A stretch of DNA of 64,000 bases, taken from assembly GCF_036346855.1 (NCBI RefSeq), contig NZ_CP107841.1, positions 10,691,583 to 10,755,582 of the forward strand, read 5' to 3'. This DNA comes from Streptomyces europaeiscabiei (GTDB lineage Bacteria > Actinomycetota > Actinomycetes > Streptomycetales > Streptomycetaceae). A program made the translations under genes and the position numbers. Below are positions 42,856-59,919 of the stretch, piece after piece. Positions within the stretch are counted from its first letter, which is position 1. Every line of letters begins with the position of its first letter. The notes beneath the pieces were generated by a model, which was not told the DNA's origin, did not search any database, and saw only the letters and a list, made by a program, of their open reading frames with translations.

Positions 42856-43480
42856 GCTTGTTCATCGTCGACCATGATCTGTCAGGCCTGCCGATGGCCT
42901 CTGGGGGCTTGGGGCGTTTGCCGGTCTGGCCGACGTCGTAGCGGGTGGCGGCCGTTGGCTTTCCCTCGCGCGCTTCCCGACGACCACAGCACTTGCTGAT
43001 GCCTGGTCCGGCCGATGACCGCGTCGTAGGTCACCCGGGGTCATCCCCGCGTACGCGAGGGCGCGAAATGTCCACGAGTGGTCTTTCTATGGCCATGACG
43101 TGGAAGACATCCGCCTGCTTGAGTTCGAACCGCCAGCCTTTGCCGCCAACTGAACTGCGAGCGTGCCGAGCTCGTACCGGTCCTCCAGGAGGAACTGCAC
43201 CGTGCGCCCGTTTCGGGAGGGCGAGGCCGTGCGGCGGACCTGGGTGTAGCTGCGATCTCTCGGGTTGGTGTCGGTGGTGGTGAGAGTCGGTCGTGCTGGT
43301 CCAGGGGTGGGTGTTACGGGGCTGGTCAGCGGCTGTTTACGGGTGGGCAGGCCGCTGTCATGAGGTGAGAGATTAATGGGTGGGATCGCTGTCGTGGGGC
43401 TTTATCGCATGGCAGCTGATGTTGTCTCAGATTCGAGAGTTCTTATGCGCTGAGGTTGGCCCGGTCGGTGTGATCGTGGG
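42856..43480. other. Long non-coding stretch left of the transposition module
   Basis: About 625 bases with no credible gene on either strand. It may hold the left end of the four-gene transposition module, but I find no convincing repeat pair with the right side. A single GGTCATCCCCGCGTACGCGAGGG (43038) resembles a type I-E CRISPR repeat but is solitary. Confidence 0.4.
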
Positions 43481-44710
43481 GTGGACCAAGAGGTAAGGGC
43501 CGGTCGTGGGCCCGTGCTGCCCCGGGGGTTGGTGGTGCGTCGTCTGCTGGAGCGGCAGCAGGCGGGGGAACTGGCCACGCGGCATGTGCGTGCGGTCGCG
43601 GAGACGGTGGGTGTCTCGGAGCGTACGGTGTGGCGCTGGCTGGAGCAGGCCAAGACGACCGGGCAGGTGGAGGCGCCGGTCCGGCAGGGGTATGCGGTGT
43701 CGGACGAGGTGTGGGCGCTGCTGGGCGAGGTGGGAGGGAATGTCGCTGAGCTGAGACGCCGGCTGGCCGCGGCTGGCGGGGCGTCGGTTCCGTCGGCGTC
43801 GACACTGCACCGGGTGATCCGCAGGGACCGCCGGGCGGGCCGGGCGTTGATGGTCGAGCGGGAGCCCGTGGTGGCCGGGCCACGCAGGCCTGATCCGCTC
43901 AGCGAGCTCGGCCTGAACGTCGTGGCAGGCCAAGGCACAGGCGGGCAGGTGATCCTGCGGGAGCAGAAGCATCTGGCGCAGGTTCCGGTCCTGGTGCCGG
44001 GCGCGCAGGTGGTGCACACGTCTGCTGTGCGGTCGGTGCTGCGGACGGTCGCGCACGCGGCCGCGGTGGGGGCGGTGGTGTGTTTGTACGGCGACGCCGG
44101 CCAGGGCAAGACCGTCGCGCTGCAGTACGCCCTGTCCCAGTTGCCGCACCCGGCCAGGGTCCGTCGGGTCCATGTCGGTGTGCATCCGACGGTGCCGGAA
44201 CTGCGCCGGGTGCTCGCGGATGCCCTTGAGCTGGGCAGGCGTCTGCCGCGCGGGGCGGGGGAGGCCGACCTGATGCTGGTGAACGCGCTACGGCAGCCGC
44301 GCGTGCTGGTGCTGGACGAGGCACAGCGTCTTCCGGGGCCGGCGCTGGAGTTTCTGCGCGGGCTGTGGGACCACCCGGACACGGACACGGCACTCGTGCT
44401 GGCGGGCGCGGGCAGCGAACGGGCGCTGCGCCGGGTGCCCGCGCTGGCCTCTCGGGTGCTGACCTGGGAGTTGGTGCCTCGTCTTCGCCCGGACGAGGTG
44501 GCCACCGTGATGGCGGCCTTCCACCCGCTGTGGGAGGACGTGAGCGAGGACGATGTCGCGTGGGTGGACGAGCATGTGGGCCACGGCAATTTCCGGACCT
44601 GGGCGAAGCTCACCTCGCACCTGACCGCCGAGGTCTACGGCAAGAGCCGTGCGGTAGTGGACCGCCGGATGCTGGAGCGGGCCTGCGCACGGCTCATGGG
44701 GCCGCTGTGA
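43481..44710 (+). CDS. HTH-AAA+ fusion protein of a Tn7/Mu-like transposition module
   Basis: 409 residues. Residues ~15-130 are a double DNA-binding region: VRRLLERQQAGELATRHVRA, ETVGVSERTVWRWLEQAKTT, then PSASTLHRVIRRDRRAGRAL. It is clearly homologous to the N-terminus of the adjacent transposase. Residues ~175-409 are a TnsC-type AAA+ ATPase: Walker A GDAGQGKT (204-211), Walker B VLVLDEAQ (Asp279/Glu280), and a C-terminal part (PALASRVLTWELVPRLRPDE, AFHPLWEDVSEDDVAWVDEH, GHGNFRTWAKLTSHL) paralogous to the ATPase two genes downstream. A TnsB-like DNA-binding region fused to a TnsC-like ATPase is unusual and suggests direct recognition of element ends or targets by the ATPase. Its stop overlaps the transposase start (GTGA). 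Confidence 0.85.
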   Translation: MDQEVRAGRGPVLPRGLVVRRLLERQQAGELATRHVRAVAETVGVSERTVWRWLEQAKTTGQVEAPVRQGYAVSDEVWALLGEVGGNVAELRRRLAAAGGASVPSASTLHRVIRRDRRAGRALMVEREPVVAGPRRPDPLSELGLNVVAGQGTGGQVILREQKHLAQVPVLVPGAQVVHTSAVRSVLRTVAHAAAVGAVVCLYGDAGQGKTVALQYALSQLPHPARVRRVHVGVHPTVPELRRVLADALELGRRLPRGAGEADLMLVNALRQPRVLVLDEAQRLPGPALEFLRGLWDHPDTDTALVLAGAGSERALRRVPALASRVLTWELVPRLRPDEVATVMAAFHPLWEDVSEDDVAWVDEHVGHGNFRTWAKLTSHLTAEVYGKSRAVVDRRMLERACARLMGPL

Positions 44711-46419
44711 CCGGCGCCTCCGGGACGGGAGAGGCTGGCAGCCACGAGGACGGGCACGCGCGGGGAGGTCTGCCTTCTTCCTCCCTGTCGGCGCTGCGCG
44801 GCCCTGCTGTGCGCCGGCTGCTCGCCCTGCGACAGGACCAGAAACTGACGTCCCGCCATGTACGGCTGATGGCGGAGTCGTTGGAGGTGACCGAGCGCAC
44901 GGTGTGGCGGTGGCTTGCCGCTGCCGAGCGTGACGAGTCCGCGGCTGCGGAGCCCGGGGCGCGGGCCCAGAGCAAAGACCGCTTCTCCGTCACTCCGGAG
45001 GTGCGCCGCCTGTTGGCTTTGTGGAAGGGCAACGTCGCGGCGGTCCATCGTGAGCTGATCGCTCGCGCGGCCAAGGGCGAGGGGGAGCCTCCTCCGTCGA
45101 TCCCGACGCTGCACCGGGCGATCCAGCGGGATCTGACGCCGGGGGAGCGGGCGGGGCTTGCGGGAGGGGAACGTGCGGCACGCAAGCACGATGTGTTCCT
45201 GGCCCGGCCGCGCGGCTGGCGCAACCAGGTGTGGGAGACCGACCACGTCCAAGCGGCGGTGCTGGTCGACGTCGAGGGCAAGGCCCGCAGGCCGTGGATC
45301 ACCTGGTTCACCGACTGCGCGACGAACGCGATCACCGGTGTCGCGGTCACGCCGGGGGATCCGTCGCGGGAGTCGGTACTGGCCGCGCTGCGCTCCGCGG
45401 TCTTGCGCGAGGACCCCTACGGCCCGATCGGCGGCCTGCCCGAGAAAGTACGGGTCGACCGCGGTAAGGACTTCCTGTCCCGGACGGTGACCGCAGCGTT
45501 TGATCTCCTGGACGTGACGGTGGAGGACCTGCCCGCCTACACCCCCCACCTCAAGGGCACCGTGGAGGGCCTGAACCGTGCGGTGGAGAGTATGTTCCTG
45601 GCCGCGCTGCCCGGCTATGCCCGCCAGCCGCGCCCCGGCAAACGGGCTTCCCGCCCGAAGGACGAAGTACTGCTCGGCTTCGAGGACTTCACCGCCCGGC
45701 TGCTGGCCTGGACGCTCTGGTGGAACACCGAGCACCGCCCGGCGCCGTTGCGGGGCAAGACTCCGCTCGAGGCGTGGCAGGGGGATCCCACCCCGCTGCG
45801 GGACGTGCCCGCGACGGATCTGTGGACGTTCACCCTGGAGGACGCCGGCACCCGCACGCTGACCACCCGCGGCATCCGCTTCAGGAAACGCGACTACGTG
45901 GGGCCGTGGATGACCGGCCAGACCGGGATCCAGGTCCGCATCCGCTTCATGCCCCACCACGACCACCGCATCGAGGTGTACCACGCGGCCACTGGCCGCT
46001 ATCTGGGTCCCGCGGACCTGGCCGACCATGCCACCGAGGAACAGGTCAGCGCCGTACGGCGAGCACGGGCCGCCCGTGCGCGCCGTCTGAAGAAGGACCT
46101 GGAGGCTTCCCAGCGCGAGCGCTACGCCGCCGCCATCCAGCCCGAGGCACCTCAGCGGCTCGGCGCGCTGACCACCGCGCAGGCCGAGGCCGAACTCGCC
46201 CAGACTGCCGACACCGACCTCGCGCAGCTCGCAATGCCGGACCTCATCCCGCCCGCCGCGCCCCCGGCCGACTGGCGCACCCCTGCTTCCCTGGCCGCGC
46301 TGACCACGCCGGGCCCGCGCGTCCCGCACCCGCCCGGCCGTGATGGCGCTTCCGCCCCGTACGGCCGCAACGGGCGGGCCGCACGTCCCACCACCGACGA
46401 AGACGGAGACGCCTCGTGA
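44707..46419 (+). CDS. TnsB/Mu-type DDE transposase
   Basis: 570 residues. The N-terminal HTH regions (VRRLLALRQDQKLTSRHVRL, VTERTVWRWLAAAERDE, SIPTLHRAIQRDLTPGERAG) are followed by an RNase H-like rve core with Asp179 (WETDHVQAAVLVD), Asp251 (VRVDRGKDFLS) and Glu287 (KGTVEGLNR), giving the D-D-35-E spacing. A C-terminal Mu-type beta-barrel (FTLEDAGTRTLTTRGIRFRK, RDYVGPWMTGQ) and a charged, alanine-rich tail complete it. The GTG overlaps the upstream stop and its own stop overlaps the next GTG, so the genes are co-translated. All catalytic residues are present. Confidence 0.9.
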   Translation: MTGASGTGEAGSHEDGHARGGLPSSSLSALRGPAVRRLLALRQDQKLTSRHVRLMAESLEVTERTVWRWLAAAERDESAAAEPGARAQSKDRFSVTPEVRRLLALWKGNVAAVHRELIARAAKGEGEPPPSIPTLHRAIQRDLTPGERAGLAGGERAARKHDVFLARPRGWRNQVWETDHVQAAVLVDVEGKARRPWITWFTDCATNAITGVAVTPGDPSRESVLAALRSAVLREDPYGPIGGLPEKVRVDRGKDFLSRTVTAAFDLLDVTVEDLPAYTPHLKGTVEGLNRAVESMFLAALPGYARQPRPGKRASRPKDEVLLGFEDFTARLLAWTLWWNTEHRPAPLRGKTPLEAWQGDPTPLRDVPATDLWTFTLEDAGTRTLTTRGIRFRKRDYVGPWMTGQTGIQVRIRFMPHHDHRIEVYHAATGRYLGPADLADHATEEQVSAVRRARAARARRLKKDLEASQRERYAAAIQPEAPQRLGALTTAQAEAELAQTADTDLAQLAMPDLIPPAAPPADWRTPASLAALTTPGPRVPHPPGRDGASAPYGRNGRAARPTTDEDGDAS

Positions 46420-47159
46420 CCGCGGCCACCTACCAGTACGTCGACCTGCCCGATGCGTCCGTGGTCACCACCCGCGCCCTGCTCACCGCCCGGGAGAACA
46501 TCTCCGACACGGTCGCCGCCCGCGCCATGATGTGCATCCACGGCGGCGCCGGCTTCGGCAAGACCCTCGCTGTCAACACCTGCCTGCGCGCACTCGAGCC
46601 CGGTGAGGACGTCCGCAAGATCACCTTCCGGGCCCGGCCCACCGCTCGCGCGGTGCGCTACGAACTGTTCACCGCGCTCGACTTGGCCGGCGAACCGCCG
46701 CGCCACCCCAGCGAGTTCGACCGCCTGCTGAAAACCGCCCTGGCCGAACGCCCCCGCACCTTCCTGGTGGACGAGGCCCAGTGGCTCAACGGGGAGGCGT
46801 TCGAGTACTTCCGCTACCTGTGGGACGAACCCTCAACCCAGCTCGCGATCATCTTCGTCGGTGGGGAGGGCTGCCACACCGTGCTGCGCCGCGAACCGAT
46901 GCTGTCCTCCCGCATCTTCATCTGGCAGCACTTCACCCGTCTCACCCCCGGCGAGGTCCTGGAGGCCATCCCCTTGTTCCATCCGGTGTGGGCCGACGCC
47001 GATCCCGACGACATCGCCTTCGCCGACCAGCACGCCGCACACGGCAATTTCCGCGCTTGGGCCCAGTTGACCGCCCACACCCGCACCGCCCTGACCCGCA
47101 CCGGCCGCTCCCGTGTCGATCAGGAGCTGCTGCGCTGGGCCTTCAGCCGCCTCGCCTGA
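46416..47159 (+). CDS. TnsC/TniB-like AAA+ ATPase
   Basis: 247 residues. Walker A HGGAGFGKT (residues 42-50), Walker B TFLVDEAQ (Asp119/Glu120), a sensor-like LAIIFVGGEG, and a C-terminal region PMLSSRIFIWQHFTRLTPGE then HGNFRAWAQLTAHTRTALTR typical of TniB/TnsC/IstB-type regulators that activate and target DDE transposases. It is paralogous to the ATPase half of the first gene but lacks the DNA-binding extension. GTGA overlap with the transposase stop. Confidence 0.88.
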   Translation: MTAATYQYVDLPDASVVTTRALLTARENISDTVAARAMMCIHGGAGFGKTLAVNTCLRALEPGEDVRKITFRARPTARAVRYELFTALDLAGEPPRHPSEFDRLLKTALAERPRTFLVDEAQWLNGEAFEYFRYLWDEPSTQLAIIFVGGEGCHTVLRREPMLSSRIFIWQHFTRLTPGEVLEAIPLFHPVWADADPDDIAFADQHAAHGNFRAWAQLTAHTRTALTRTGRSRVDQELLRWAFSRLA

Positions 47160-47176
47160 CCACCACGCCGCCTGCC

Positions 47177-48277
47177 GTGTCGCCGACACCCGTTGCCGTG
47201 GTCATCGACCCGGGCGACGACGCGGTCCACACGCACACCGCCCTGGCCGCCCACCATCCGCCGTCCGGCCGGATCACCCTGCACCCCGGCCCGGGCACCA
47301 CCAGCGAGACCGGCCTCGCCCACGACCTTCTCGCCGCCCTGGGCAAACCGCCCCTGCTCCCGGGGCGTTTCCCCGCCGGCCGTCAGCCCGCCTGGGAAGC
47401 CGCCACCGCCTGGATCACGGCCCTGCCCGTCACCCGGCTGACCGTCCTGCGCGCCCACCGCCTCACCGCCCGCCGCACGATGCGCCTCCTGCAGTTGCGC
47501 GCCCTCACCGGCATCCGCCTGACGCTGGTCTGCCACCGCCCCCATCTGCCCGCCGCCCTGCACCAGGCGCTGCGGACGGCCGACTACGCCGTCACCACAG
47601 ACTTCCAGGCAGCCCGCCGCCACTACTACGGCGCGACTGCTCCCGTACCCCCGCCTGCAGAGGAGCCCGCCCGGTCGCCAGACCGGTGGCTCACCCTGTC
47701 CGTGCTGGACCGCCTCGTCTCCTACGACAGCCCCATCCCCTGTACCGCCCCGTGCACACCGCCGCCGATCACCTTCCGGCACCGCCCGCCACCCGCACCC
47801 CTCACCGGGCAGACAACCCGGGAAGTCACCCGGCGCCTCTCCACCGTGACCGCCCACCCCCGCCTGGCCACCGCCCTCGCCGCCGCGCTCTTCACCGGCG
47901 CCTCCTTCCAGCAGCTTGCCACCGCCCGCCCCGGCGACTACGACGACGCCGCGGCTACCCTGGCCCTGCACGACCGCGCTCGCTACACCGACGGCTGCGC
48001 CACCCACCGGGTGCCGCCGTGGGCGCGCGTCTTCCTGAAAGCCGCAGTGTGCTTCGCCCGGCTCGCGCCCGGCCAGGACCAGCACCTGCTGGCCGGCCCC
48101 CACGACCGCACCCACCTGCTGCTCGTGGCCGAGGCGGCCAGGATGCGCCCGCCCCAGCCGCCCGTCGGTCAGCGCACCGGCCCTGTCGGCCGCATCCAGT
48201 GGGACTGGCGCGAACGAAAGGAAGCCCAGTACTACGACGCGATGCTGACACGGCACCAGACCCCGCCCTCGCCCTGA
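47177..48277 (+). CDS. Fourth protein of the transposition module, unrecognised
   Basis: 366 residues from a GTG 18 nt after the ATPase stop. The first ~140 residues follow the plan of an AAA+ core without a Walker A (PVAVVIDPGDDAVHTHTALA, VTRLTVLRAHRLTARRTMRL, LTGIRLTLVCHRPHLPAALH), as if a third, inactivated ATPase. The C-terminal half (THPRLATALAAALFTGASFQ then QLATARPGDYDDAAATLALH, WARVFLKAAVCFARLAPG) has helices faintly like a tyrosine-recombinase core but no catalytic set. Its position is where TniQ/TnsD targeting proteins stand in related transposons, so a target-selection role is an inference only. It converges with the Tpg paralogue (20 bp apart). Confidence 0.7.
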   Translation: MSPTPVAVVIDPGDDAVHTHTALAAHHPPSGRITLHPGPGTTSETGLAHDLLAALGKPPLLPGRFPAGRQPAWEAATAWITALPVTRLTVLRAHRLTARRTMRLLQLRALTGIRLTLVCHRPHLPAALHQALRTADYAVTTDFQAARRHYYGATAPVPPPAEEPARSPDRWLTLSVLDRLVSYDSPIPCTAPCTPPPITFRHRPPPAPLTGQTTREVTRRLSTVTAHPRLATALAAALFTGASFQQLATARPGDYDDAAATLALHDRARYTDGCATHRVPPWARVFLKAAVCFARLAPGQDQHLLAGPHDRTHLLLVAEAARMRPPQPPVGQRTGPVGRIQWDWRERKEAQYYDAMLTRHQTPPSP

Positions 48278-48297: not shown

Positions 48298-48852
48298 TCA
48301 GTCGATGGAGAACTCGGCGAACTCCACATCGGTGAAGGCGATCCCCAGACCGTGGGCACGCAGGCCTCCATCACGGAAGTAGGCATGCCCCAAAGCTCGG
48401 GCGAGGATCACCATCTGCTGCTGCTCACCCCCGCCGGCGTCCCGGGCGGCGAACAGCTCGCGGGCCACTTCTCCCGACAGGTACTGGGTGATCAGCCGTA
48501 CCCGCGGATCGTCGGACGATCCTGCCGGAGCGGCGAATCCGAACCGCGCCCTGGTGTGGAGGACAAAGCCGTCGGCCTCGGCCCGGGCCCGCTGGCGGGC
48601 CCGCACCCGGGGCTGCCACCGTGCCCTGACGGCCTCTTCGATCAACCCCACGTGTACAACGCTGGGGCGGCGGCGCACTGCCGGCCGGGCGGTGACCCAT
48701 CGCTGTACCGTGCGCTGGGAGATTCCCAGGAGGGCAGCCACGTTCTTCGTGGAGCCCTTCTCCGCCCTGAGCAGGAAACGCACAGCGGCGTCACCAGTGG
48801 GCACGGGACGGGTCAGCAGCGCTCGCTCAAGCCCCTTGACGATCTCCTCCAT
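48298..48852 (-). CDS. Tpg-like telomere terminal protein paralogue
   Basis: 184 residues, the length of Streptomyces Tpg. It shares with the Tpg at 51854 the start (IVKGLERALLTRPVPTGDAA), the HTH segment (KNVAALLGISQRTVQRWV), the basic region (RARWQPRVRARQRARAEADG), the RARFGFAAPAG motif, and the C-terminal REL, LGHAYFRDGGL and IAFTDVEFAEFSID. Tpg proteins bind covalently to telomere 5' ends and prime the last lagging-strand gap. It reads toward the transposition module and has no tap gene of its own. Divergence at the N-terminus and middle suggests a plasmid-type or specialised copy. Confidence 0.9.
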   Translation of the reverse strand: MEEIVKGLERALLTRPVPTGDAAVRFLLRAEKGSTKNVAALLGISQRTVQRWVTARPAVRRRPSVVHVGLIEEAVRARWQPRVRARQRARAEADGFVLHTRARFGFAAPAGSSDDPRVRLITQYLSGEVARELFAARDAGGGEQQQMVILARALGHAYFRDGGLRAHGLGIAFTDVEFAEFSID

Positions 48853-49482: not shown

Positions 49483-49566
49483 CAGCTTCACTGGGGTGCG
49501 CCCATAGTTCGGTGAGATGGGGCACCTGCGACAGCCCGGGCGACGCAACCGTATCTTACGCAGCCC

Positions 49567-49588
49567 GTACGCATTTGGTACGCGAAAT
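49567..49588 (+). promoter_or_regulatory. TACGC direct repeats before tap
   Basis: GTACGCATTTG and GTACGCGAAAT occur back to back (49567-49577, 49578-49588), 37 nt before the tap start and next to a TTACGCAGCCC. They are candidate regulator sites of the tap-tpg promoter. Confidence 0.4.
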
Positions 49589-49624
49589 GTGCGCTTCACG
49601 CTAGGGTCGGGCAGGAGGTGCTGC

Positions 49625-51847
49625 ATGTCCGAGCTGTTCGACGCGGTCGACGCGCTCATCGCGTCCCGCTCCCCGTTGCCGCCCCCGGCGGAACGCAAGC
49701 GGCTGCGCCAGGCGCACGGCCTGACGCTGGATGAGGTGGCCGCCGCACTGCAGGTGCGGCGCGCGACGGTCAGCGGCTGGGAGGCCGGCAAGACCGAGCC
49801 ACGGCCGCCGGAGCGTGACGCATACGCCCGCATGCTCAAGCAGCTCGCCCAGCTCTACCCCGCCAACGGTCCGGTGCCCCCTGTGGACACGGCGATTCCC
49901 AAGACGCCTGCCGTCGCGGCCGCTCCTGCGCCATCGGAAGTTGAGCCGGCCCAAGCCCGCACCGCACCTACAGACCCGGCTGCTGAGCCTGCGAACACCG
50001 CACTCCGCCCCGCTGCCCCTGCCGCCGTACCGGGCCCGACGGCCACGACCAGGCCGACGCCGCGCCGTCCGGCCGCGAAGAAGGCCGCCCCCGCAGGCAC
50101 ACCGACGTGCGGCGCCGATCGGCGGTTCGAGAACGGTCCGCTCGCGGTCGTCGACGTTGACGTCGACGGTCAGGTGCTGGCGTACTGCGTCGGCGGCCTG
50201 GTCCTGGACGTACCGGCCAAGTCGATCCCGGCCCTGGTGGAGTGGACGCTCCGCGAAGGGCGGCTCGGACAGCCGAAGTTGTCCGGGCCGGGCAAGGACG
50301 CCGACCCGCTGATCGTGCTGACCGAGGCCGCGTGCGAGCACTACGGCCTGCCCGTCACGCTGACACAGCAGGAGCGTCTGGCCGGCCGGATCCCGGAGGG
50401 CCACAAGGTCATCAAGCAGCTGACGCGTGCCAACTGGCAGCTGACCAAGCGCGGCTTCGGGCCGTGGGCGAGGATCTACCGCCCCGCGCAGGGTTCGGAG
50501 CGATCCTGCGTGCAGCTGTGCATTCCGTCGTGGGACGCGCTCGACATCCGGCACTGGGCCAACGCGGGGCAGCTGCCGCCGGCGGATCTGGCCCGGCTGC
50601 TGGGCACGTATGCGGCCCGGGTGATGACGCCGCGCGGATCGACCGCCGTGACCGGCCTGGAGCTGATGACCGCGCTGCACCCGCCGACCCGCGCATCCGA
50701 GCCCGATGCCGACGGCAAGCGGCACTCCGAACACAACCCCGGCTCACTGGGGAAGGGTCCGGTGGACTGCGCGCCGGGCGAGGCCCCCGACGGGCACCCG
50801 CTGCTGAAAGACCTTCCGCGCTTCCACCACCGCACCCCGGCGGAGGTCCTGGTGGAGGAGGCGTACGACTGGGCGCGCCCGCTCACCGACGCCGAATGCC
50901 TTCGCCCCCATCTGGTGGGCATCGACGTGAACATGGCCTTCGCCGCCGGCGCCAACGGCCTCACGGTCGGCCTAGGCGCGCCGACGCACGTCAAGAACCC
51001 CGTCTTCGACGCGAAACTGCCCGGTTCCTGGCTGGTCGACCTGAGCCACGTCGACCTGTCCCGCGTGAAGCTCGGCAAGGAGTGGACGGACCTGGACGGC
51101 GAGCTGCTGCCCAGTCCGTTCACACCGAAAGGCGAGCGCCCGGCAGGACCGGCCTGGTACGCCACGCCGACCGTGGCGTACGCGGTGGAGCTCGGCTACG
51201 ACGTCGCGCCGGTCGAGGCGTACGTCCGTCACGACAACGGCCGCTACCTGGACGGCTGGTACAACCGGCTGCGTGACGCCTACCTCGCCACGATGGCCGA
51301 CCTCGGCGTGCACGCGGACATGCCGCCAGCCGACTTCCTCGCGGCGATGGACGGCTACCGGCAGCGTGACCCTCAGCTGGCGATCGTGGTGTCCGCGATC
51401 AAGGCGACCGTGAAGGGCGGCATCGGCAAGCTGCGCGAGCGCCCGCGCGGGGAGGGCTGGAAGCCCGGGCAGCCGTGGCGGGCCCTTGCCCGGCCCACCT
51501 GGCGCCCGGACATCCGCGCCGCCGTCATCTCCCGCACGCGGATCAACATGCACCGCAAGATCGTCAAGCACGCCGCCTTCACCGGGCAGTACCCGGTCGC
51601 GGTCCTCTCGGACTGCGCCGTCTACGCCTCCGACGGGCCCTCCCCGCTGGACTTCCTGCCCTACCGGGACGGCAAGCCGCTGCCGGGCGGCTTCAAGCTC
51701 GGCGTGAACCCCGGGCTGGTGAAGCACGAGGGCACCCAGAGCGTGCTGTGGGGCGAGGGGGTGCGCGAGCAGTTCAACGCTCCGGAGCTCAACCTCGCCC
51801 GGTACATCAAGGACGGCACCGTTACCGTTCAGGACACCGGGGAGTAG
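49625..51847 (+). CDS. tap: Telomere-associated protein Tap
   Basis: 740 residues, the expected length. The N-terminus has an XRE-type HTH (RKRLRQAHGLTLDEVAAALQ, then VRRATVSGWEAGKTEPRPPE, residues ~20-62), a proline/alanine linker, and the long family-specific region (NGPLAVVDVDVDGQVLAYCV, HYGLPVTLTQQERLAGRIPE, FGPWARIYRPAQGSERSCVQ, GIDVNMAFAAGANGLTVGLG, RTRINMHRKIVKHAAFTGQY). Tap binds the telomere 3' overhang and recruits Tpg to patch chromosome ends in linear Streptomyces replicons. The ATG has AGGAGG 7 nt upstream. tpg follows after 6 nt, the classic tap-tpg operon. Confidence 0.95.
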   Translation: MSELFDAVDALIASRSPLPPPAERKRLRQAHGLTLDEVAAALQVRRATVSGWEAGKTEPRPPERDAYARMLKQLAQLYPANGPVPPVDTAIPKTPAVAAAPAPSEVEPAQARTAPTDPAAEPANTALRPAAPAAVPGPTATTRPTPRRPAAKKAAPAGTPTCGADRRFENGPLAVVDVDVDGQVLAYCVGGLVLDVPAKSIPALVEWTLREGRLGQPKLSGPGKDADPLIVLTEAACEHYGLPVTLTQQERLAGRIPEGHKVIKQLTRANWQLTKRGFGPWARIYRPAQGSERSCVQLCIPSWDALDIRHWANAGQLPPADLARLLGTYAARVMTPRGSTAVTGLELMTALHPPTRASEPDADGKRHSEHNPGSLGKGPVDCAPGEAPDGHPLLKDLPRFHHRTPAEVLVEEAYDWARPLTDAECLRPHLVGIDVNMAFAAGANGLTVGLGAPTHVKNPVFDAKLPGSWLVDLSHVDLSRVKLGKEWTDLDGELLPSPFTPKGERPAGPAWYATPTVAYAVELGYDVAPVEAYVRHDNGRYLDGWYNRLRDAYLATMADLGVHADMPPADFLAAMDGYRQRDPQLAIVVSAIKATVKGGIGKLRERPRGEGWKPGQPWRALARPTWRPDIRAAVISRTRINMHRKIVKHAAFTGQYPVAVLSDCAVYASDGPSPLDFLPYRDGKPLPGGFKLGVNPGLVKHEGTQSVLWGEGVREQFNAPELNLARYIKDGTVTVQDTGE

Positions 51848-51853: not shown

Positions 51854-52411
51854 ATGAGCATGTTCGGGGACGGCCTGGACGCCGCGGTGCAGAAGGCGTT
51901 CACCCGCCCGGTGCCCAAGAGCGCGCCCGCGCAGATGCGGTACCTGGTCAAACAGCTCAAGGGCACCAAGGCGGTCGCCCAGATGCTGCGGATCTCGCAG
52001 CGCACGGTCGAGCGGTACGTGAAGGACCAGATCAAGAAGCCCCGCCCGGACCTCGCAGCCCGCCTGGAGCGGGAGGTGAAGAAGCGGTGGCAGCCGCAGA
52101 TCCGTGCCCAGGCGCGGCAGAAGGCGGCGACCACCGGCGGCATCGTCATCGACACCCGCGCCCGGATCGGCTACACCGCGCCGATCGGGACGACGGACGA
52201 AGACCGGCTGCGGCACCTGACGGTCGCGCTGCCTCCCCAGTACGCCGCCCGCCTCTTCGACGCCCAGGAGCAGGGCGCCACCGACCAGCAGCTCCAGCAG
52301 ATCGCCGCCGAAGCCCTCAAGGAGGTGTACTTCCAGGACAGCGGCCGCCGCGCAGGCCAGCTGGAGGAGGTCCGCCTCACCGGCATTGAACACCTCGAGT
52401 TCGACCTGTAG
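51854..52411 (+). CDS. tpg: Telomere terminal protein Tpg
   Basis: 185 residues. MSMFGDGLDAAVQKAFTRPV start, an HTH-like region (KAVAQMLRISQRTVERYVKD) that recalls a reverse-transcriptase-thumb/DNA-binding segment, a strongly basic middle (RLEREVKKRWQPQIRAQARQ), ARIGYTAPIGTTDEDRLRHL and the C-terminal EVRLTGIEHLEFDL. Tpg is covalently attached to the 5' telomere ends and, with Tap and polymerase, fills the terminal gap. The gene follows tap immediately, with GGAG 9 nt before the ATG. The window therefore encodes its own telomere-capping system. Confidence 0.95.
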   Translation: MSMFGDGLDAAVQKAFTRPVPKSAPAQMRYLVKQLKGTKAVAQMLRISQRTVERYVKDQIKKPRPDLAARLEREVKKRWQPQIRAQARQKAATTGGIVIDTRARIGYTAPIGTTDEDRLRHLTVALPPQYAARLFDAQEQGATDQQLQQIAAEALKEVYFQDSGRRAGQLEEVRLTGIEHLEFDL

Positions 52412-52857
52412 AGAACGGCCGTGACGAGGCGAGCCCCGGGCCGTCGGCCTGTAGCTCGCTCACGCAGCGGCGACTTGCTGCAGTAGTTACGGCGCCTTCA
52501 CAAAGCGGCGTCACCGAAAGAGGGCGGCGTTGTCGGTGGGCCCCGGTACTCTGGACGACAGCATTCGGCTCCATGCCGTGAGTCTTCCTGAACCCCCAGT
52601 GGCCCATCCGGGTCGGGGGCGTCCGCAATGACCGTCTGGTCACGCGATCCCCGGATCGCGACACGATCTTCGGATCGTGACGACCACCGCGTCGCGGCAG
52701 AGGGCCGACGAGCGGACGGGTTCAGCGCTCATATCGCGTATGCGTGCGGCAGCTGAGACTGATGACCCCCGAGAAAGTGCGGGTGTCCGGGCGCCTTCGT
52801 GCTCTGCCCGGACCAGCCGGCCCAGGCAGCCGCGTACCCCCATCTCGGGAGGCAGCC
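52412..52857. other. Intergenic region with two stacked hairpins
   Basis: About 445 bases without a gene. It includes the tap-tpg 3' end and the promoter of the large downstream gene. The two hairpins are listed separately. Confidence 0.5.
52643..52679. terminator. Two adjacent short perfect hairpins
   Basis: CGCGATCC-CC-GGATCGCG (52643-52660) and CACGATC-TTCG-GATCGTG (52662-52679) follow each other with one base between; the second has a stable C(UUCG)G tetraloop. They could terminate tap-tpg transcription or form a structured 5' leader/operator for the next gene (start 52858). The shared GATC/CGATC core also suggests a protein-binding array. Confidence 0.5.
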
Positions 52858-55083
52858 ATGAATCCTGACATCATCGAGGACTACGAGTCCGACGAGGACC
52901 ACCCCCAGAGCAATCCGTTCCCGGGCGCCGACAAGGTCACGTGGACGCGCACCTTCTCCGTCGCGCTGCACGAGACCACCGGGCTCCCCCTGGAAATCAC
53001 CGACGGTCTCGCCCCCTACATCGTCCACCCCAAGGACTACCTCCTCAGGCAGCGCGGCGAAGACGGTGCCGAGTACCGGATCAAGCCCGGAGTGATCAAC
53101 CGCGACCCGAGCACCGGCCTCGACATCATGGAGGTCACCGTCCATGGGTTCGCCGGCACTCCCGGCGAGTACAACGAGCGCATCCGCCGCTTCTTCCACT
53201 CTCCCGCGCGCCACAACCCTGACCCGGCCCGCATGCTTCCGCGTCTGGTCACCGGCCGACACGAGGGCGCGCTGCCGGCGGCATTCCTGACGACCGCGGC
53301 CCCGGTGGACAGCCAGACGCTGAGCGGGCTGATCGGCACCATGACCGATGCCCTCGACCAGGCTGATGGGGACCGCGGCTACAAGCTGATCGACGACATG
53401 CAGGTCTACGGGCAGAACGAGACCACCCTGCACGCCCTGCTGCTGCGTCAGGTCCGGGAACCGGTCAAGGAACTGGACGGTGGCATCACTGCCCAGGTGC
53501 GCCGGGTTCTCGACGCGACCGCCGTCAAGGGCGCGAACCGGAGCCGGGCCCGCCTCGCGCTTCACGGCCTGGTGCCGAAGGACATCATCTTCGGCATCGA
53601 TCGCGGTCTCCTCGGACTCGACGGTGTCGACGGCGTTCCCGCGAAGGTGGCCGACCCCGCGGTGTGGGTGCCGGCGTTCGCGGAGAGGCTGCGCGTCGCC
53701 TTCGACGACGAGCGGCACTCCCTCCATGGCCAGGCGAAGCAGGCCGCCATGGTCGCCACGGTCAGGATGCAGATCATCGTGGGGACCTCCGCCCCGGAGG
53801 ACTTCCACAACGTCGTCTTCGACCCGAATCGGGCCGACCACCGGCGCCCGCCCCTGGGCTACACCCTGGTCGAGAAGGCGGCCTCCGACCTGCGTGCCGT
53901 TCTGCGGGATGCGAAGCAGCGCGGATGGATCAGCGAGGAGGAGCGTGCCTGGCTCGCCGGGGAGGGTCCCGATCCCGAGCACCGTCCCGGCGAAGGCATC
54001 GTCACTGCCCGCGACCGGCGCGACCGCGCCCTGTACGCCGTCGTCTTCCCCAAGGACCCCGCCCGGGCCAGGGCCCTGCGCCGGGTGCTGGGCGAGCCGG
54101 CCCGCTACGCCACGAGCAAGGACCACGTCTGGCACCGCCTGCGCATGGTCTCCTCGGTGATCGGCGAGGGATACAGCTTCCGCTGGAATCCTCGCGTCCT
54201 GGACGGCCTGCTGAGCAGCACCTTCATCAAGTCCCAGGGGCACCTCGCCGAGGAACCCGCGTGGGACAAGGTGATCGGCGCCGTCAGTACGGCCGGTCAG
54301 CCGCTCGATCTCGATGCGCTCGACCGCTTCCTGACGACCCGCGGCATCCACTGGCTCGCCGAGTGCAAGATCATCGAGGCGGACCGTGGGTCGATCGGTG
54401 CACAGAGCGGCAGCGGGGAGCTCGAGGACGGCGAAACCGTCGCTGACAAGAAGATCCGCCGGAGCACGATCAACGCCCGCAAGGCCATGCTCAGCCAGCC
54501 CCGCCGGACGGTCGGGCTGATGAACGAGCTCGCCAGGGCAACGGCCAAGAACACCACGCCCCGGCAGGTGGACCCCGAAGGCCTTCCTATCGAAGACACC
54601 AAGGCGGACAAGTCCTGGTTCGATACGGTCTTCCCGAAGGCCCAGACCAAGCGCCCGCCGACGTTCACGCCCCGGGGCAGCAGCACCGATGGGACGACCC
54701 CGCAGCCTCCGGACCCCACCCCCCTGGAGATCTTTAACGACACCCGTGGCCGCTTCTACGACGCAGTCACCGGCGATCTGCCCGCGGCCCTGGTCGAGGT
54801 GCTCAAGACAGCGCGGTCCCTTCTGTCCGACGCGCAGGGGGCCGGTCAGCGGCCTCTGCACGGAGCCGTGGAGCAGGAAATCGCCGCTCTTCTCCGCGCT
54901 CTGTCCGTGGTGCACTCCGACGTGGGCATGCTGAAGTCGGCCATCATCGACATGCAGTACGGCAACCCGACCATCGAGGAGTCCGCGTCGGAGAAGTTCC
55001 TCACGGAGGCCAGCGACTCCGACGAGGACGACGACCTGGCGGAGTTCGAGGAGGAGTTCACGGAGGAGGGTGACGCCCTGTGA
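52858..55083 (+). CDS. Large protein of unknown function, first gene of a two-gene operon
   Basis: 741 residues, soluble, no recognised domain. Visible features: an acidic N-terminus (DIIEDYESDEDHPQSNPFPG), a beta-rich part that reads like a DGQHR/ParB-nuclease-like opening (TRTFSVALHETTGLPLEITD then HPKDYLLRQRGEDGAEYRIK), a helical middle (FAERLRVAFDDERHSLHGQA), WLAGEGPDPEH, a WHRLRMVSSVIGEGYSFRW region, and a very acidic C-terminus (ASDSDEDDDLAEFEEEFTEE). The start ATG has GGGAGG 6 nt upstream; an earlier in-frame start at 52744 is less likely. Its stop overlaps the next GTG. Long, telomere-proximal and coupled to a small gene, it has the look of an accessory or defence operon. Confidence 0.75.
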   Translation: MNPDIIEDYESDEDHPQSNPFPGADKVTWTRTFSVALHETTGLPLEITDGLAPYIVHPKDYLLRQRGEDGAEYRIKPGVINRDPSTGLDIMEVTVHGFAGTPGEYNERIRRFFHSPARHNPDPARMLPRLVTGRHEGALPAAFLTTAAPVDSQTLSGLIGTMTDALDQADGDRGYKLIDDMQVYGQNETTLHALLLRQVREPVKELDGGITAQVRRVLDATAVKGANRSRARLALHGLVPKDIIFGIDRGLLGLDGVDGVPAKVADPAVWVPAFAERLRVAFDDERHSLHGQAKQAAMVATVRMQIIVGTSAPEDFHNVVFDPNRADHRRPPLGYTLVEKAASDLRAVLRDAKQRGWISEEERAWLAGEGPDPEHRPGEGIVTARDRRDRALYAVVFPKDPARARALRRVLGEPARYATSKDHVWHRLRMVSSVIGEGYSFRWNPRVLDGLLSSTFIKSQGHLAEEPAWDKVIGAVSTAGQPLDLDALDRFLTTRGIHWLAECKIIEADRGSIGAQSGSGELEDGETVADKKIRRSTINARKAMLSQPRRTVGLMNELARATAKNTTPRQVDPEGLPIEDTKADKSWFDTVFPKAQTKRPPTFTPRGSSTDGTTPQPPDPTPLEIFNDTRGRFYDAVTGDLPAALVEVLKTARSLLSDAQGAGQRPLHGAVEQEIAALLRALSVVHSDVGMLKSAIIDMQYGNPTIEESASEKFLTEASDSDEDDDLAEFEEEFTEEGDAL

Positions 55084-55505
55084 GCGGAGCCCTGCCGACC
55101 GGCCCGGTCCTGACCGACGGCCGCCTGGGTGCCCTGCCCCGAGCAGCCGGCCGGTACCTCGACGAGGTTCTCTTCCGGCCCGTGCGCTGGGCCGAGCGGT
55201 GGCGGTACGAGGAACTGGACATCACCACCGCGATCTACCTGATCTCAGACACGGAGCACCGTCTCCGCTGGCTGGGGCAGGCCAACCGTGCGGACGGCCT
55301 GCTCGGACGGCTGGACAGGCACGACAACAATCCGGCGAAACGCAGGGTCTTCGCCCGGATCCGCGTCCTGAGGCTCACCGATCACACGCCGCCGGAGGCC
55401 GTGGACGCGATCGAGGGCCGGTGCGCTGACCTCCTGCGGATCCGGGATGTGATGCGGCCGCGGAGGTGGCCGCCTGCCGACGACTGGTTCGTACTCACCT
55501 CCTGA
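55080..55505 (+). CDS. Small partner protein of the two-gene operon
   Basis: 141 residues beginning at a GTG that overlaps the upstream stop (GTGA). Mostly alpha-helical: AGRYLDEVLFRPVRWAERWR, LDITTAIYLISDTEHRLRWL, NPAKRRVFARIRVLRLTDHT, ending PRRWPPADDWFVLTS. No family recognised. The tight coupling suggests a complex with the 741-residue protein. A strong terminator follows. Confidence 0.7.
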   Translation: MSGALPTGPVLTDGRLGALPRAAGRYLDEVLFRPVRWAERWRYEELDITTAIYLISDTEHRLRWLGQANRADGLLGRLDRHDNNPAKRRVFARIRVLRLTDHTPPEAVDAIEGRCADLLRIRDVMRPRRWPPADDWFVLTS

Positions 55506-55515
55506 CGCGTGTGCG

Positions 55516-55553
55516 GTAAGACGCCCCCAGTGATGCTGTGGGGCGTCTTACCT
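55516..55553. terminator. Strong hairpin terminator
   Basis: A perfect 13-bp stem GGTAAGACGCCCC / GGGGCGTCTTACC (55516-55528, 55541-55553) with a 12-nt loop, 10 nt after the stop codon of the two-gene operon. Confidence 0.8.
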
Positions 55554-55752
55554 GGTGCTCGGTGCACACCGACTCCCGGCCGTGGGCGTGATGCAGACGC
55601 AGCCGGGAGTTCGGGGCATCCCGACCGTGTGCATCGGCGAGCCCTGTGGTAGCCCGCGACACAGCGGTGGGCTCGTGGGGGAAGTGGTAACGGAGAAGAG
55701 GTCCCAGGCGGAACGGGAATGGGTTGTCAGAGGTGTGCGGCATCATCGGCAG

Positions 55753-56637
55753 ATGGCCGCCACACAAGCCCCGCCGACGTACCTGGAACGCCTCCGCTCC
55801 GACCTGGACCTGATCGAAGCGGATTTCCTCAAGGCTCTCGCGGACTCGCAGATCCGGAACATCGACCCGAACCGCCCATCCGGCGGCATCTTGTACGTCG
55901 GTGCCGCGAAGTGGGGCTGGGTACCCAGTGGCCCCGAGCTCGAGACGCGAAGGATGGAACTGCTGGGGCGCGTACGGGAGTGGGAGCCGTTGTTCCGGCT
56001 GCTGTTCCCGCACCCGACCCCGGAGGTCACCAAGCGCCTCGACGGGACCCTCGGCCTGTTGCAGCGCTGGCTTGTACGCCCCCGGGACACCACCGTGCCG
56101 GCCAGCATCGACAAGGCCGTCGACAAGGTCAATGCGGCCGCAGCCACGCTCCGGAAGCTGGGCGAGCTCCTGCCGGATGACGCCTGGGCGGTGCGTGTAG
56201 CGGTCGACACGAACGTGCTGCTCGATGACCCCGACGTGGCGGTCTACACGCCGCTGCTCGGGAATCGGTACATGGTCCACCTGCTGCCCGTTGTCCTGCG
56301 GGAGTTGGACGACCACAAGCTCGCCGGCCGCAACCCCGACATCCGCGACGCGGCGAAGAAGGCCGACCGCCGACTGAAAGGGCTTCGGACCAACGGCGAC
56401 GTTCTGCGCGGCGTACGAGTGGCCGGCGATGTGCACGCCCTCTTCGAGCACATCGAACCCAAGGGCGACGGACTGCCCAACTGGCTCGACCTCGACGTGC
56501 CCGACGACCGCTTCGTGGCCTCCACCCTGCTGCTGCAGTCCCGGCACCCCGGCTCCGCCGTCTACGTGGCCACCAGGGACATCAACCTTCAGACGAAACT
56601 CGCCGCCGTCGGACTGCCCTTCATCAAAAAGCCATGA
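55753..56637 (+). CDS. PIN-domain protein
   Basis: 294 residues. The N-terminal ~140 residues are helical and unknown (YLERLRSDLDLIEADFLKAL...). The C-terminal half is a PIN-like nuclease: VRVAVDTNVLLDDPDVAVYT (first metal-binding Asp), VHLLPVVLRELDDHKL (Glu), RDAAKKADRRLKGLRTNGD and LDVPDDRFVASTLLLQS then VATRDINLQTKLAAVG (third and fourth acidic sites). This resembles the PhoH-type/large PIN domains that cleave RNA. The unusual N-terminal extension and the absence of a small antitoxin gene argue against a simple VapBC pair. The next gene follows after 39 nt. Confidence 0.85.
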   Translation: MAATQAPPTYLERLRSDLDLIEADFLKALADSQIRNIDPNRPSGGILYVGAAKWGWVPSGPELETRRMELLGRVREWEPLFRLLFPHPTPEVTKRLDGTLGLLQRWLVRPRDTTVPASIDKAVDKVNAAAATLRKLGELLPDDAWAVRVAVDTNVLLDDPDVAVYTPLLGNRYMVHLLPVVLRELDDHKLAGRNPDIRDAAKKADRRLKGLRTNGDVLRGVRVAGDVHALFEHIEPKGDGLPNWLDLDVPDDRFVASTLLLQSRHPGSAVYVATRDINLQTKLAAVGLPFIKKP

Positions 56638-56676
56638 GCACCAGCAAGCCCGTCGTACCGAGCAAGGGAGCACCCT

Positions 56677-57609
56677 GTGTCCGCCGACTTCTCCACCCTG
56701 CACGAACCGCTCGTGGAGTGGGTCTACGACCGCACGAGAACTGATCCGCTGGGCGGAGTGCCGATCACCGAGTTCGGGCAGTCGCATGGCCTCACCGAGA
56801 ACCAGACCTACCGGCTCCTGCAGTTCTGCAAGGTCCAACGGCTCCTGGGCGACCGTGACACCACCCACGACGGCCCGGAAGCCAACCTGACCCCGCGCGG
56901 CCTTGAATGGATGGAGGAGCGCAGGCGCCGGCGCGCCGACCCGGCCGCGCGGGCCGCCGCCGCACGCAAGGGCCTGCTGGTCTGGCTGTGGCATCGCAAA
57001 CACGACGACATCCTGCTGCCTGCCGTCGCGGACGTGCTGAACGATCCGCTGTCCCTCTTCGAGGGCGAACGCCTCACCGACAGGGACATCGACCGGGCCT
57101 CCGCCTACCTGAGCGCCAAGGGCCTGATCAAGGGGGACCGGAACGGGAGCTCGGACGGGCCCGTGCAAGCCGAGATCACCGCCGAAGGAGAAGACTGCGT
57201 GGACAACTACCAGGGTGACATCGGCGCGTACGAACGCCGCAACACCAGTGGGAACACCACTTTCCACATCGGGCAGAACACGGGCAACATCGCCGCGAAC
57301 AGCCGCGACTTCACGCTGAACGCGACCACGAACAGCGGCGTCGACCTCGCCCAGGTCGTCATGGCCGCCCGCGCACTCCGCCAGGCCGTGCCGATTCTGG
57401 GGCTGCCCGAAGACGATGCCGCTGAGATCACCCAACTGGCGACGCGCATGGAAGAGGAAGCCACCAGCGTTAGCCCCGATCCAAGCCGTCTCCAGCGGTG
57501 GGGTGCCCAGACGCTGGCCGTCCTGTCGCCCGTTGCCAGTGGTGCGCTGGGCAGCGTTCTCGCCGCCTACCTCGGAGTCGTGCTGCCTGGACTGCCGACA
57601 GGGGGCTGA
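56677..57609 (+). CDS. Winged-helix protein with Asn/Gly motif and hydrophobic tail
   Basis: 310 residues. Two winged-helix-like segments (LVEWVYDRTRTDPLGGVPIT, HGLTENQTYRLLQFCKVQRL and later RDIDRASAYLSAKGLIKGDR) are followed by a low-complexity, beta-prone Asn/Gly/Thr stretch (GNTTFHIGQNTGNIAANSRD then FTLNATTNSGVDLAQ) and a C-terminal hydrophobic segment (LAVLSPVASGALGSVLAAYL). The Asn/Gly stretch recalls amyloid-type signalling motifs at effector tails in actinobacteria. With a membrane segment and a PIN nuclease neighbour, a conflict or defence role is an inference. GTG start after AAGGGAG. Confidence 0.7.
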   Translation: MSADFSTLHEPLVEWVYDRTRTDPLGGVPITEFGQSHGLTENQTYRLLQFCKVQRLLGDRDTTHDGPEANLTPRGLEWMEERRRRRADPAARAAAARKGLLVWLWHRKHDDILLPAVADVLNDPLSLFEGERLTDRDIDRASAYLSAKGLIKGDRNGSSDGPVQAEITAEGEDCVDNYQGDIGAYERRNTSGNTTFHIGQNTGNIAANSRDFTLNATTNSGVDLAQVVMAARALRQAVPILGLPEDDAAEITQLATRMEEEATSVSPDPSRLQRWGAQTLAVLSPVASGALGSVLAAYLGVVLPGLPTGG

Positions 57610-57801
57610 CGCGCCAGGACGGAGCTCCATCTGTGTCGGATCGCCCGCGCGAGCAGATGTGACTCATCGTGGAGGCGCACAGCCGCTCACGCCCCGAACG
57701 TGCCCGGTCAATCTGCGCCGTGATGACGTCCACGCCTCCGCCTTCGCCGACGAACGTGTTGGACTGGTGGCGTCCCGTACGCAACTCCCCGGGGAGGGAC
57801 C
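57610..57801. other. Intergenic region, nothing recognised
   Basis: 190 bases between the winged-helix protein and the degenerate AAA-like gene; it ends with the GGGGAGGGACC ribosome-binding site of the latter. Confidence 0.4.
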
Positions 57802-58321
57802 ATGGGCGAGGCCGCCACGGCCGTGTCCGACGAAGCGTTCTCCGCACTTGCCGAGAACCTGGGCCACATCCTTTGAGACCCGCGCGCTGCTGTGCGTCAT
57901 CGCGCCGAAGGACGTCCAGGGTGCGGCCGTGGTGGAGGCTTCCCTCAGCCGCTGCGACGGGGCCGACTCCGTCGTGGTCACGACCGCCGCGCCGGGCAAC
58001 CTCGCGGCGCTCCTGGACGCGTTCCACGCCGCCCTGCACCTCGGTGTCCGGCCGCGACGGCTGGCCGACGCACAGCGGGCTGTCGAGAACGAACTCGGCC
58101 GCCGCTCCTGGCCGGTGGTGGTTGTACGCGATGCCCATCTGCTGCGGACCGAGGCCCTTCAGTACATCTACGGGCTGTGGAGCCTGTTCCAGGACCGTGA
58201 ACGCCGCATGCCTGTCGTCCTGGTGGGACCCGAGCGGATCCGGTCCGTGCTGCGCCGGCCGTCACTCGCCAGCCTGGAGAGCTGCATCTTCATCTGGCAC
58301 CGACTCACGCCTCCACCCTGA
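57802..58321 (+). pseudogene. Degenerate AAA-like (TniB/TnsC-related) gene with frameshift
   Basis: A strong ribosome-binding site (GGGGAGGGACC) precedes ATG 57802 (GEAATAVSDEAFSALAENLG). The frame then stops at 57870 while the +1 frame continues RALLCVIAPKDVQGAAVVEA, RSWPVVVVRDAHLLRTEALQ, RRMPVVLVGPERIRSVLRRP and SLESCIFIWHRLTPPP. The order matches a TnsC-type ATPase (Walker B position VVVVRDAH, sensor VVLVGPE, then a FIWHRLTP tail like FIWQHFTRLTP in the module at 46416), but Walker A is replaced by APKDVQG. With one frameshift and no P-loop it is a pseudogene or a deliberately inactive paralogue. Confidence 0.55.
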
Positions 58322-58542
58322 AGGCGCGAGACCCCGACCCCTGGACTTCTGCGTACGGCGCCACGGCCGTGCAGTGATCAGTTCAACCGGGCGAGGGTGG
58401 CAGCCCGTCATCTCCCCGCCCAGCACGTGACCAGCCGACTACGGCCGCACAGAGGCTCAACCGACCGTGCCGACAGGGCGCACAGGAGGCCACTGCGTAC
58501 GCAGACATCGACCGGCAGCCGCTCGAGTAACAGGTGCCTGAT
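58322..58542. other. Intergenic region, nothing recognised
   Basis: 220 bases between converging genes; no gene or clear terminator seen. Confidence 0.4.
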
Positions 58543-59514: not shown

Positions 59515-59626
59515 GGGATCTATGGTCGCGAACCGGGAAGGACCGCGCTTGGGTTTTCCGCTGTCCGCCGATCGCTCACGGGCTGGGACGCGTAGGTGCG
59601 GCGGCTATCTGCCAGCCGACAGCACG

Positions 59627-59662
59627 AGACCCCAGGCCTCTCGAAGAGAGGGTCCGGGGTCT
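59627..59662 (-). terminator. Terminator of the terminal helicase operon
   Basis: A nested hairpin: outer arms AGACCCC (59627-59633) and GGGGTCT (59656-59662), inner CCTCTC-GAA-GAGAGG (59637-59651). It lies 33-68 nt downstream of the last minus-strand gene of the telomeric operon. Confidence 0.75.
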
Positions 59663-59694
59663 GGCGTGGTGGGGCGGGAGCAGGCAGAGCCTTC

Positions 59695-59892: not shown

Positions 59893-59919
59893 GACAGCGG
59901 AGGCGATTTCGTCCTTGCG

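What the first reader, a model, noticed from the sequence alone, without database searches (positions are those of the whole stretch)
43481..48277. Four-gene Tn7/Mu-like transposition module with a TnsB-like DNA-binding region fused to a TnsC-like ATPase
Seen directly: four genes are chained by GTGA overlaps or an 18-nt gap. The first protein's N-terminus (VSERTVWRWLEQA, PSASTLHRVIRRD) is homologous to the transposase N-terminus (VTERTVWRWLAAA, PSIPTLHRAIQRD). Its C-terminal ATPase is paralogous to the third gene's ATPase (AFHPLWEDVSEDD / LFHPVWADADPDD, HGNFRTWAKLTSHL / HGNFRAWAQLTAHT). Known: Tn7 and Tn5053 families use TnsB/TniA plus one AAA+ regulator and a separate targeting protein. Inferred: this arrangement, with two AAA+ paralogues, one carrying a transposase-like DNA-binding region, no TnsA and no recognisable TniQ, is a distinct transposon architecture in which the ATPase itself could read element ends or the target.
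Basis: partly seen in the sequence, partly recalled or inferred. Interest (0 to 1): 0.85.

Follow-up and report, generated by a model that had tools for sequence, protein, structure and literature searches.

The report
Telomere-bounded transposon at chromosome end
The four genes are the moving parts of a jumping element that has one true DNA end and uses the chromosome tip as its other boundary, so each jump appears to give a linear bacterial chromosome or plasmid a new tip.

Summary
The four genes are real and in the stated order. They belong to a 20.7-kb element, window 43251-64000, running from one sharp transposon end (5'-TGCGATCTCTCGG...) to the telomere of a linear Streptomyces chromosome. 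It also carries Tpg, Tap and a terminal helicase; an identical copy sits at the other chromosome end. Mobility is supported by comparison: different flanks stop at the same base in many relatives, the uninterrupted target exists in three genomes and its distal side was not found here, one genome carries a related element at all four replicon ends with different flanks, and some copies sit inside older telomeric genes. The HTH-AAA fusion is real, with conserved HTH and ATPase residues. The fourth protein's N-terminus is predicted to fold like TnsC/MuB but lacks both Walker motifs: three AAA+ modules, no TniQ. Telomeric transposons were published in 2025 (Hsieh et al., not readable here), so this is filed as a new member of a known kind. 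I propose one-ended strand transfer of the Tpg-capped strand, with the HTH-AAA protein reading the inner end; that is inferred.

The parts
43142..43250 (.). Interrupted target: remnant of a sequence that is continuous in three other genomes; ends at the element junction
   Evidence: 91%, 88% and 86% identical to L085, L086, L087; all three alignments stop at 43250 although the query ran to 43400; the empty sites continue ...TGGGTGTAGC|GGAC...
43251..43480 (+). Inner transposon end: 5'-TGCGATCTCTCGGGTTGGTGTCGGTGG..., with CTGTCATGAGG-type repeats at about 43355 and 43389
   Evidence: Sharp start of homology in 14 of 24 loci with different flanks, plus L030 whose contig begins there; alignment of 24 ends; the only match to the end motif in the window at up to 5 mismatches
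43481..44710 (+). P1: HTH-AAA fusion (start codon uncertain)
44707..46419 (+). P2: TnsB/MuA-type DDE transposase (D179, D251, E287 by motif)
   Evidence: Mu-transpos_C 1.6e-11, rve 3.5e-7; PDB TnsB 7svw E 1e-14 over residues 51-462; motif positions
46416..47159 (+). P3: TnsC/MuB-type AAA+ ATPase, the most conserved member (89-97% between families A, B and C)
   Evidence: AAA_22 3e-16
47177..48277 (+). P5: predicted N-terminal degenerate AAA+ (about 1-144) without Walker A or B, plus a poorly modelled C-terminus
48298..48852 (-). Module-associated second Tpg-type terminal protein (Tpg2)
   Evidence: NF047541 182.9 bits, cut-off 90
49517..51847 (+). Tap, telomere-associated protein
   Evidence: NF047542 1131.5 bits, cut-off 600
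51854..52411 (+). Tpg, terminal protein
   Evidence: NF047541 299 bits, cut-off 90
52412..59919 (.). Cargo region, mostly unassigned; DUF4238 protein at 58543-59514 (-)
59920..62841 (-). Terminal helicase (TtrA-type): DEAD/ResIII plus four HA stretches, transcribed inward
   Evidence: HA 1.4e-41, ResIII 4e-15; inward ttrA at replicon ends described in PMC8743542 (passages); the name TtrA is by position and domains
63700..64000 (.). Telomere: palindrome-rich terminal sequence, the element's outer boundary; the last bases may be missing (L017 runs on further)
   Evidence: Sequence, and matches to contig ends of L012, L017, L030; window = end of contig C1

Best explanation
It is a Tn7/Mu-related telomeric transposon. 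Shown by comparison: one specific inner end at 43251, the telomere as outer boundary, insertion at different sites, and no trace here of the target DNA distal to the insertion. Inferred mechanism: P2 nicks the 3' end of the strand that runs from the inner end (3') to the telomere (5'). The 5' end of that strand is already capped by Tpg, so a single strand transfer into a target would move a complete capped strand. Copying from the target's 3'-OH out to the telomere then finishes a new replicon end, and the distal target fragment is lost. No second transposon end and no targeting protein is needed, because only insertions that delete a dispensable distal arm and point outward survive. P1 probably binds inner-end repeats through its TnsB-like HTH region and couples that end to the P3 (TnsC-like) ATPase, with pseudo-ATPase P5 as a modulator. 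Tpg2 may link the complex to the telomere. P5 and Tpg2 are not universal: they gave no match beside the module in G067.
For: Sharp inner end: 14 of 24 loci, plus L030 whose contig starts there. Empty target in 3 genomes, junction exact; distal target not found in this genome, while a query spanning the junction hits both ends only up to the junction (one further 45-bp weak match elsewhere). G067 (related family B): copies 99.93-99.98% identical at 4 of 4 replicon ends, each breaking at the inner end with a different flank; G140: two ends, same pattern (the stretches fetched at the right-hand ends stop 1.6-5 kb short of the tips). Of 29 junction flanks, 5 lie in ttrA-type genes, all five with the inward, C-terminal side kept at the junction; 2 lie in or at the end of older module genes. 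Plasmids: of 24 listed P1 homologues with at least 89% coverage, 22 lie within 32.6 kb of a record end and all 22 point outward, 4.9 expected near an end (cut-off chosen after seeing the data); P3 at 69% identity or more: 35 of 38 listed, all outward, 8.7 expected. One end motif in the window. Tap/Tpg in the element. P1 role: window vs family C identities are P1 HTH 50-53%, P1 AAA 49-50%, P2 N-terminus 69-73%, but P2 core 93-94% and P3 95-97%.
Against: No transposition was observed; all evidence is comparative. Homologous recombination or break-induced replication between ends also spreads telomeres (PMC7205883, passages), and best explains the two identical 64-kb ends here. 2 of 24 P1 homologues are internal: one is a head-to-head fusion of two ends, the other (NZ_CP109439) is unexplained. 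G007 carries two copies in the middle of a 9.96-Mb contig. In P1 the AAA part diverges as much as the HTH part, and in family B the P2 core has diverged too (65-67%), so the covariation argument rests on family C, two genomes. Two end-located loci (L107, L108) have the P2-P3-P5 set without P1, so P1 is not needed for end location. P5's fold rests on a model with mean pLDDT 57, good only in about residues 1-150.
Confidence: 0.88

Rival explanations
1. A conventional two-ended Tn7/Tn5053-like transposon that inserted near a chromosome end and whose second end has been lost or not recognised.
For: P2-P3-P5 relatives without P1 also occur on a circular Rhodococcus plasmid whose nearby genes include one annotated as TnsA-like.
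Against: One match to the end motif in the window. The module-to-telomere side diverges at variable points (about 48699-49516 in loci that carry the whole module) with no shared right boundary, while the left boundary is fixed. End location and outward polarity in 35 of 38 P3 rows.
Confidence: 0.06
2. A telomere cassette spread only by homologous recombination or break-induced replication between replicon ends; the transposase genes are passengers.
For: Streptomyces ends are known to exchange, attributed mainly to recombination (PMC7205883, PMC8743542, passages); the two ends here are identical over at least 64 kb.
Against: Four ends in G067 share the element but not the flanks, and break at the same base. 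The window's target is continuous elsewhere with an exact junction. All 24 aligned inner ends start with TGYGA.
Confidence: 0.04
3. A variant of the best explanation: P1 binds the telomere or the target, not the inner end, and so replaces TniQ or acts as second-end factor.
For: Listed P1 homologues are nearly all at replicon ends, and no TniQ is present in the window.
Against: P1's HTH region is homologous to the N-terminal, presumably end-binding part of P2, and the telomere-proximal DNA has no copy of the inner-end motif. Two end-located loci lack P1.
Confidence: 0.3

Closest known systems
Telomeric transposons of linear bacterial genomes (Hsieh et al., Science 2025, eadp1973; not readable here, seen as a reference and one sentence in PMC12669027)
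   Same: From recall of the abstract: elements in Streptomyces and cyanobacteria with one specific transposon end and the telomere as the other boundary. PMC12669027 states that a CAST variety lacking TniQ-TnsD is associated with telomeric transposons.
   Different: Whether that paper describes this family, its HTH-AAA protein or its degenerate AAA+ protein could not be checked.
Tn7 / CAST / Tn5053 elements
   Same: TnsB-type transposase (PDB TnsB 7svw, E 1e-14) and TnsC-type AAA+ models.
   Different: No TniQ and no TnsA_N match in the window; two AAA+ paralogues with Walker motifs plus a degenerate one; single end.
Bacteriophage Mu (MuA/MuB)
   Same: MuB is the top Foldseek match for P1 and for P5 and close to the top in the second look; Mu-type C-terminal transposase domain. 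MuB has an N-terminal extension of its own (PMC11208146, passage); that it contains an HTH is recalled.
   Different: P1's HTH region is homologous to the same element's transposase N-terminus; replicon-end location.
SLP2 of Streptomyces lividans (right end)
   Same: Carries the last 44 residues of P3 (93%), P5 (78%) and Tpg2 (80%), then ABC-three component genes and a terminal helicase up to the tip.
   Different: The rest of P3, P2 and P1 gave no match in the fetched 22 kb; an AraC-type gene, an oxidoreductase gene and IS4811 lie upstream, so it looks like a remnant.

Membership tests
Telomeric transposon (2025 definition, recalled) | One specific transposon end sequence | tested here: met
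Telomeric transposon (2025 definition, recalled) | Second boundary is the telomere | tested here: met
   Window is the contig end; L012, L017, L030 contig ends match; no shared right boundary
Telomeric transposon (2025 definition, recalled) | Moves autonomously | not testable with these tools
   Comparative signs of movement only; no assay
Tn7-like (core) | TnsB-type DDE transposase with TnsC-type AAA+ | tested here: met
Tn7-like (canonical) | TnsA endonuclease | tested here: not met
   PF08722 only: no match above cut-off in the genome; one sub-threshold match at 2.81 Mb
Tn7-like / Tn5053 | TniQ/TnsD targeting protein in the element | tested here: not met
   TniQ matches only at 1.68 and 2.81 Mb of C1; P5 has no Pfam match
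Tn7-like / Mu (two-ended) | Two inverted ends and a target-site duplication | tested here: not met
   One match to the end motif in the window; no outer junction with target found, distal target absent; a strongly divergent second end is not excluded
MuB family | HTH domain followed by AAA+ with MuB/TnsC fold | tested here: inconclusive

The most novel reading that the evidence does not exclude
A one-ended transposition machine in which a single strand transfer moves a strand whose 5' end is already capped by the terminal protein, so each transposition directly builds a new telomere. An HTH-AAA protein reads the inner end and, with an active and a degenerate TnsC/MuB paralogue, replaces both the missing second end and the missing TniQ.
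Probability: 0.3. Interest if true: 0.85.

Novelty: new member of a known kind. Interest (0 to 1): 0.62.

Why it matters
Exchange of Streptomyces telomeres has been explained mainly by recombination (PMC7205883, PMC8743542; passages). A defined inner end, an exact empty site and a four-end example make transposon-driven telomere replacement directly testable. The three AAA+ modules give a concrete system for asking how such a transposase works with one end, no TnsA and no TniQ. S. venezuelae NRRL B-65442 carries an intact-looking copy on its linear plasmid.

Tried and rejected
Second transposon end: a scan for the inner-end motif (up to 5 mismatches) gave one hit in the window; 20 shuffles gave 0.4 on average. 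It gave one hit each in the fetched stretches of Sven, G140C1L and G232L, and two in G067C2L, one of them with 5 mismatches outside the element. A strongly divergent end cannot be excluded. The shorter repeat motif alone is not enriched in the window: 4 hits against 7.35 in shuffles, 2 of the 4 in the inner end.

P5 as a TniQ: no Pfam or NCBIfam match. The fold comparison listed TnsC/MuB-type and other AAA+ chains, no TniQ chain by itself; absence from that list is not proof. No Foldseek match of P5 reached E 0.001. P5 vs P3 by profile gave nothing; P5 vs P1 was weak but in register (E 0.0083, probability 4.8%).

P1-HTH as the sole specificity module: rejected as over-simple, because P1's AAA part diverges equally.

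Many left-flank matches at query 1601-1707 and 1840-1893 recur across genomes and stop short of the junction; not taken as empty sites. One search used a frame off by one base and was replaced.

Literature: ten searches. In the listings, and in the passages of the papers I opened, none describes this family; most subscription papers are not held, so this is no proof of absence.

Full report
What is there. The window lies at the very end of a 10,755,582-base contig, and the other end of that contig carries the same 64 kb: no mismatch in 64,000 positions. So the four genes sit about 15.7-20.5 kb from both tips of a linear chromosome. The genus is Streptomyces: the genome sample drawn from it includes contigs that match named Streptomyces records by length and sequence (G125 and L014; G067 C2 and NZ_CP108040 by length). 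The proteins are: P1, HTH region plus AAA+ ATPase; P2, TnsB/MuA-type transposase; P3, AAA+ ATPase; P5, a 366-residue protein without Pfam match. Next come a second Tpg-type terminal protein on the other strand, then Tap and Tpg, cargo, a terminal helicase with HA domains, and the telomere.

The inner end. Of the 24 loci found with P1, 14 show homology to the window starting at 43248-43251, with different DNA before it. In a fifteenth, L030, the contig itself starts there. The other nine were left out of junction counts: in L013, L022, L023, L031, L032, L033 and L035 homology starts further in, L017's contig starts inside the element, and L019's alignment runs on to 43217. The shared start is TGYGA, followed by conserved blocks and CTGTCATGRGG-type repeats (24 ends aligned). 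The motif matches once in the window.

The other boundary. On the telomere side there is no common stop: in loci with the whole module, alignments end anywhere from about 48699 to 49516, while L012, L017 and L030 end in sequence like the window's own telomere. A compact example, on a linear plasmid of strain NBC_00987, is P1-P2-P3, a helicase and the tip.

Movement. (a) The window's own target is continuous in three genomes; the match ends exactly at 43250, and the distal side was not found in this genome. A query spanning the junction matched both chromosome ends only up to the junction, plus one 45-bp weak match elsewhere. (b) In G067, with one chromosome and one plasmid, a family B element (99.93-99.98% identical between copies) stands at all four ends with four different flanks. 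The fetched right-hand stretches end 1.6 and 1.9 kb before the tips. G140 shows the same at two ends. (c) Of 29 junction flanks examined, 5 lie inside a ttrA-type helicase gene, and all five keep the inward, C-terminal side at the junction. L012 lies inside P5 of an older copy, G007a at the 3' end of a divergent P2, and G140C3R about 190 bases from a tpg-type gene. New elements thus replace older tips. The other flanks, the window's included, gave no match to these genes.

Position statistics. In the plasmid collection, 95 records match P1 and 40 were listed. Of the 24 listed with at least 89% coverage, 22 lie within 32.6 kb of a record end and all 22 are transcribed toward it, against 4.9 expected near an end if placed at random. 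For P3, 104 records match and 60 were listed: at 69% identity or more 35 of 38 are near an end, all outward (8.7 expected); below 61%, 17 of 22 are near an end, 7 outward and 10 inward. The cut-off was chosen after seeing the table, some records are near-duplicates, and I checked linear or circular form only for the records fetched. In the genus sample, 27 of 295 genomes, this one included, have a P1 match at E 1e-60 or better.

Which parts vary together. Between the window and family C (G165R, G232L), P2's catalytic core (93-94%) and P3 (95-97%) are nearly unchanged, while the inner end (62% over 230 bases), the P2 N-terminus (69-73%) and P1 (HTH 50-53%, AAA 49-50%) have diverged. This fits P1 and the P2 N-terminus working on the inner end, but it is indirect: in family B the P2 core has diverged too (65-67%), and P1's AAA part changes as much as its HTH part.

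Is P1 always there? No. Four fetched relatives have P2, P3 and a P5-type gene without P1: a circular Rhodococcus plasmid (L103), an inward-oriented end locus (L102) and two outward end loci (L107, L108). So P1 is an addition in this branch, not a condition for end location.

Mechanism (inferred). DDE transposases join a 3' end to the target (established knowledge). At this inner end the 3'-ending strand is the one whose 5' end lies at the telomere, where Streptomyces DNA is capped by Tpg (established knowledge). One strand transfer therefore carries a complete capped strand, and copying outward from the target finishes a new end. Only outward insertions into dispensable arms would survive, which explains the uniform polarity and the lack of a targeting protein.

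Known or new. Telomeric transposons of linear bacterial genomes were published in 2025 (Hsieh et al.). I saw the reference and one sentence about it in PMC12669027; the paper itself is not held, and its abstract is recalled. This element fits that kind. Whether its three-AAA+ set is described there is unknown to me. Earlier papers on telomere exchange in Streptomyces give recombination as the main cause (PMC7205883, PMC8743542; passages), the latter naming classical transposition as one possibility.

Noticed in passing
L102 (NZ_CP108982) and rows H154-H160: A second group (P3 about 50% identical) lies near plasmid ends but is transcribed inward in 7 of 7 near-end rows listed below 52% identity; possibly an independent telomeric family.
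   Followed up: partly
L104 (NZ_CP114282 172327-197553): Two copies of the element's inner part head to head, as a 7,712-base perfect inverted repeat: fused replicon ends or an assembly artefact.
   Followed up: partly
G007 contig C1 near 4.98 and 5.28 Mb (L078, L079): Two facing copies in the middle of a 9.96-Mb contig, one placed at the end of a divergent family's transposase gene; possibly a fused or rotated chromosome.
   Followed up: no
L101 (SLP2, NC_004933): The classical S. lividans plasmid SLP2 carries a remnant at its right end: the last 44 residues of P3, P5 and Tpg2.
   Followed up: partly
L067 (S. venezuelae plasmid) and L106 (NBC_00299): ABC-three component system genes lie inside the element as apparent cargo in S. 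venezuelae, and outside it, on the inward side of the inner end, in NBC_00299.
   Followed up: no
G000 C1 1.675 and 2.81 Mb (L114-L116): Separate TniQ-bearing loci in the same genome, one with a weak TnsA-like match about 3.4 kb away: possibly conventional Tn7-like elements.
   Followed up: no
L107 and L108 (NZ_CP106799, NZ_CP033583): End-located P2-P3-P5 sets without P1; in L108 they are preceded by a 617-residue AAA ATPase that P1 does not match.
   Followed up: partly
L109 (NZ_CP108732): Beside the compact P1-P2-P3 module lies a divergent, oppositely oriented transposase and ATP-binding pair, perhaps a second system.
   Followed up: no
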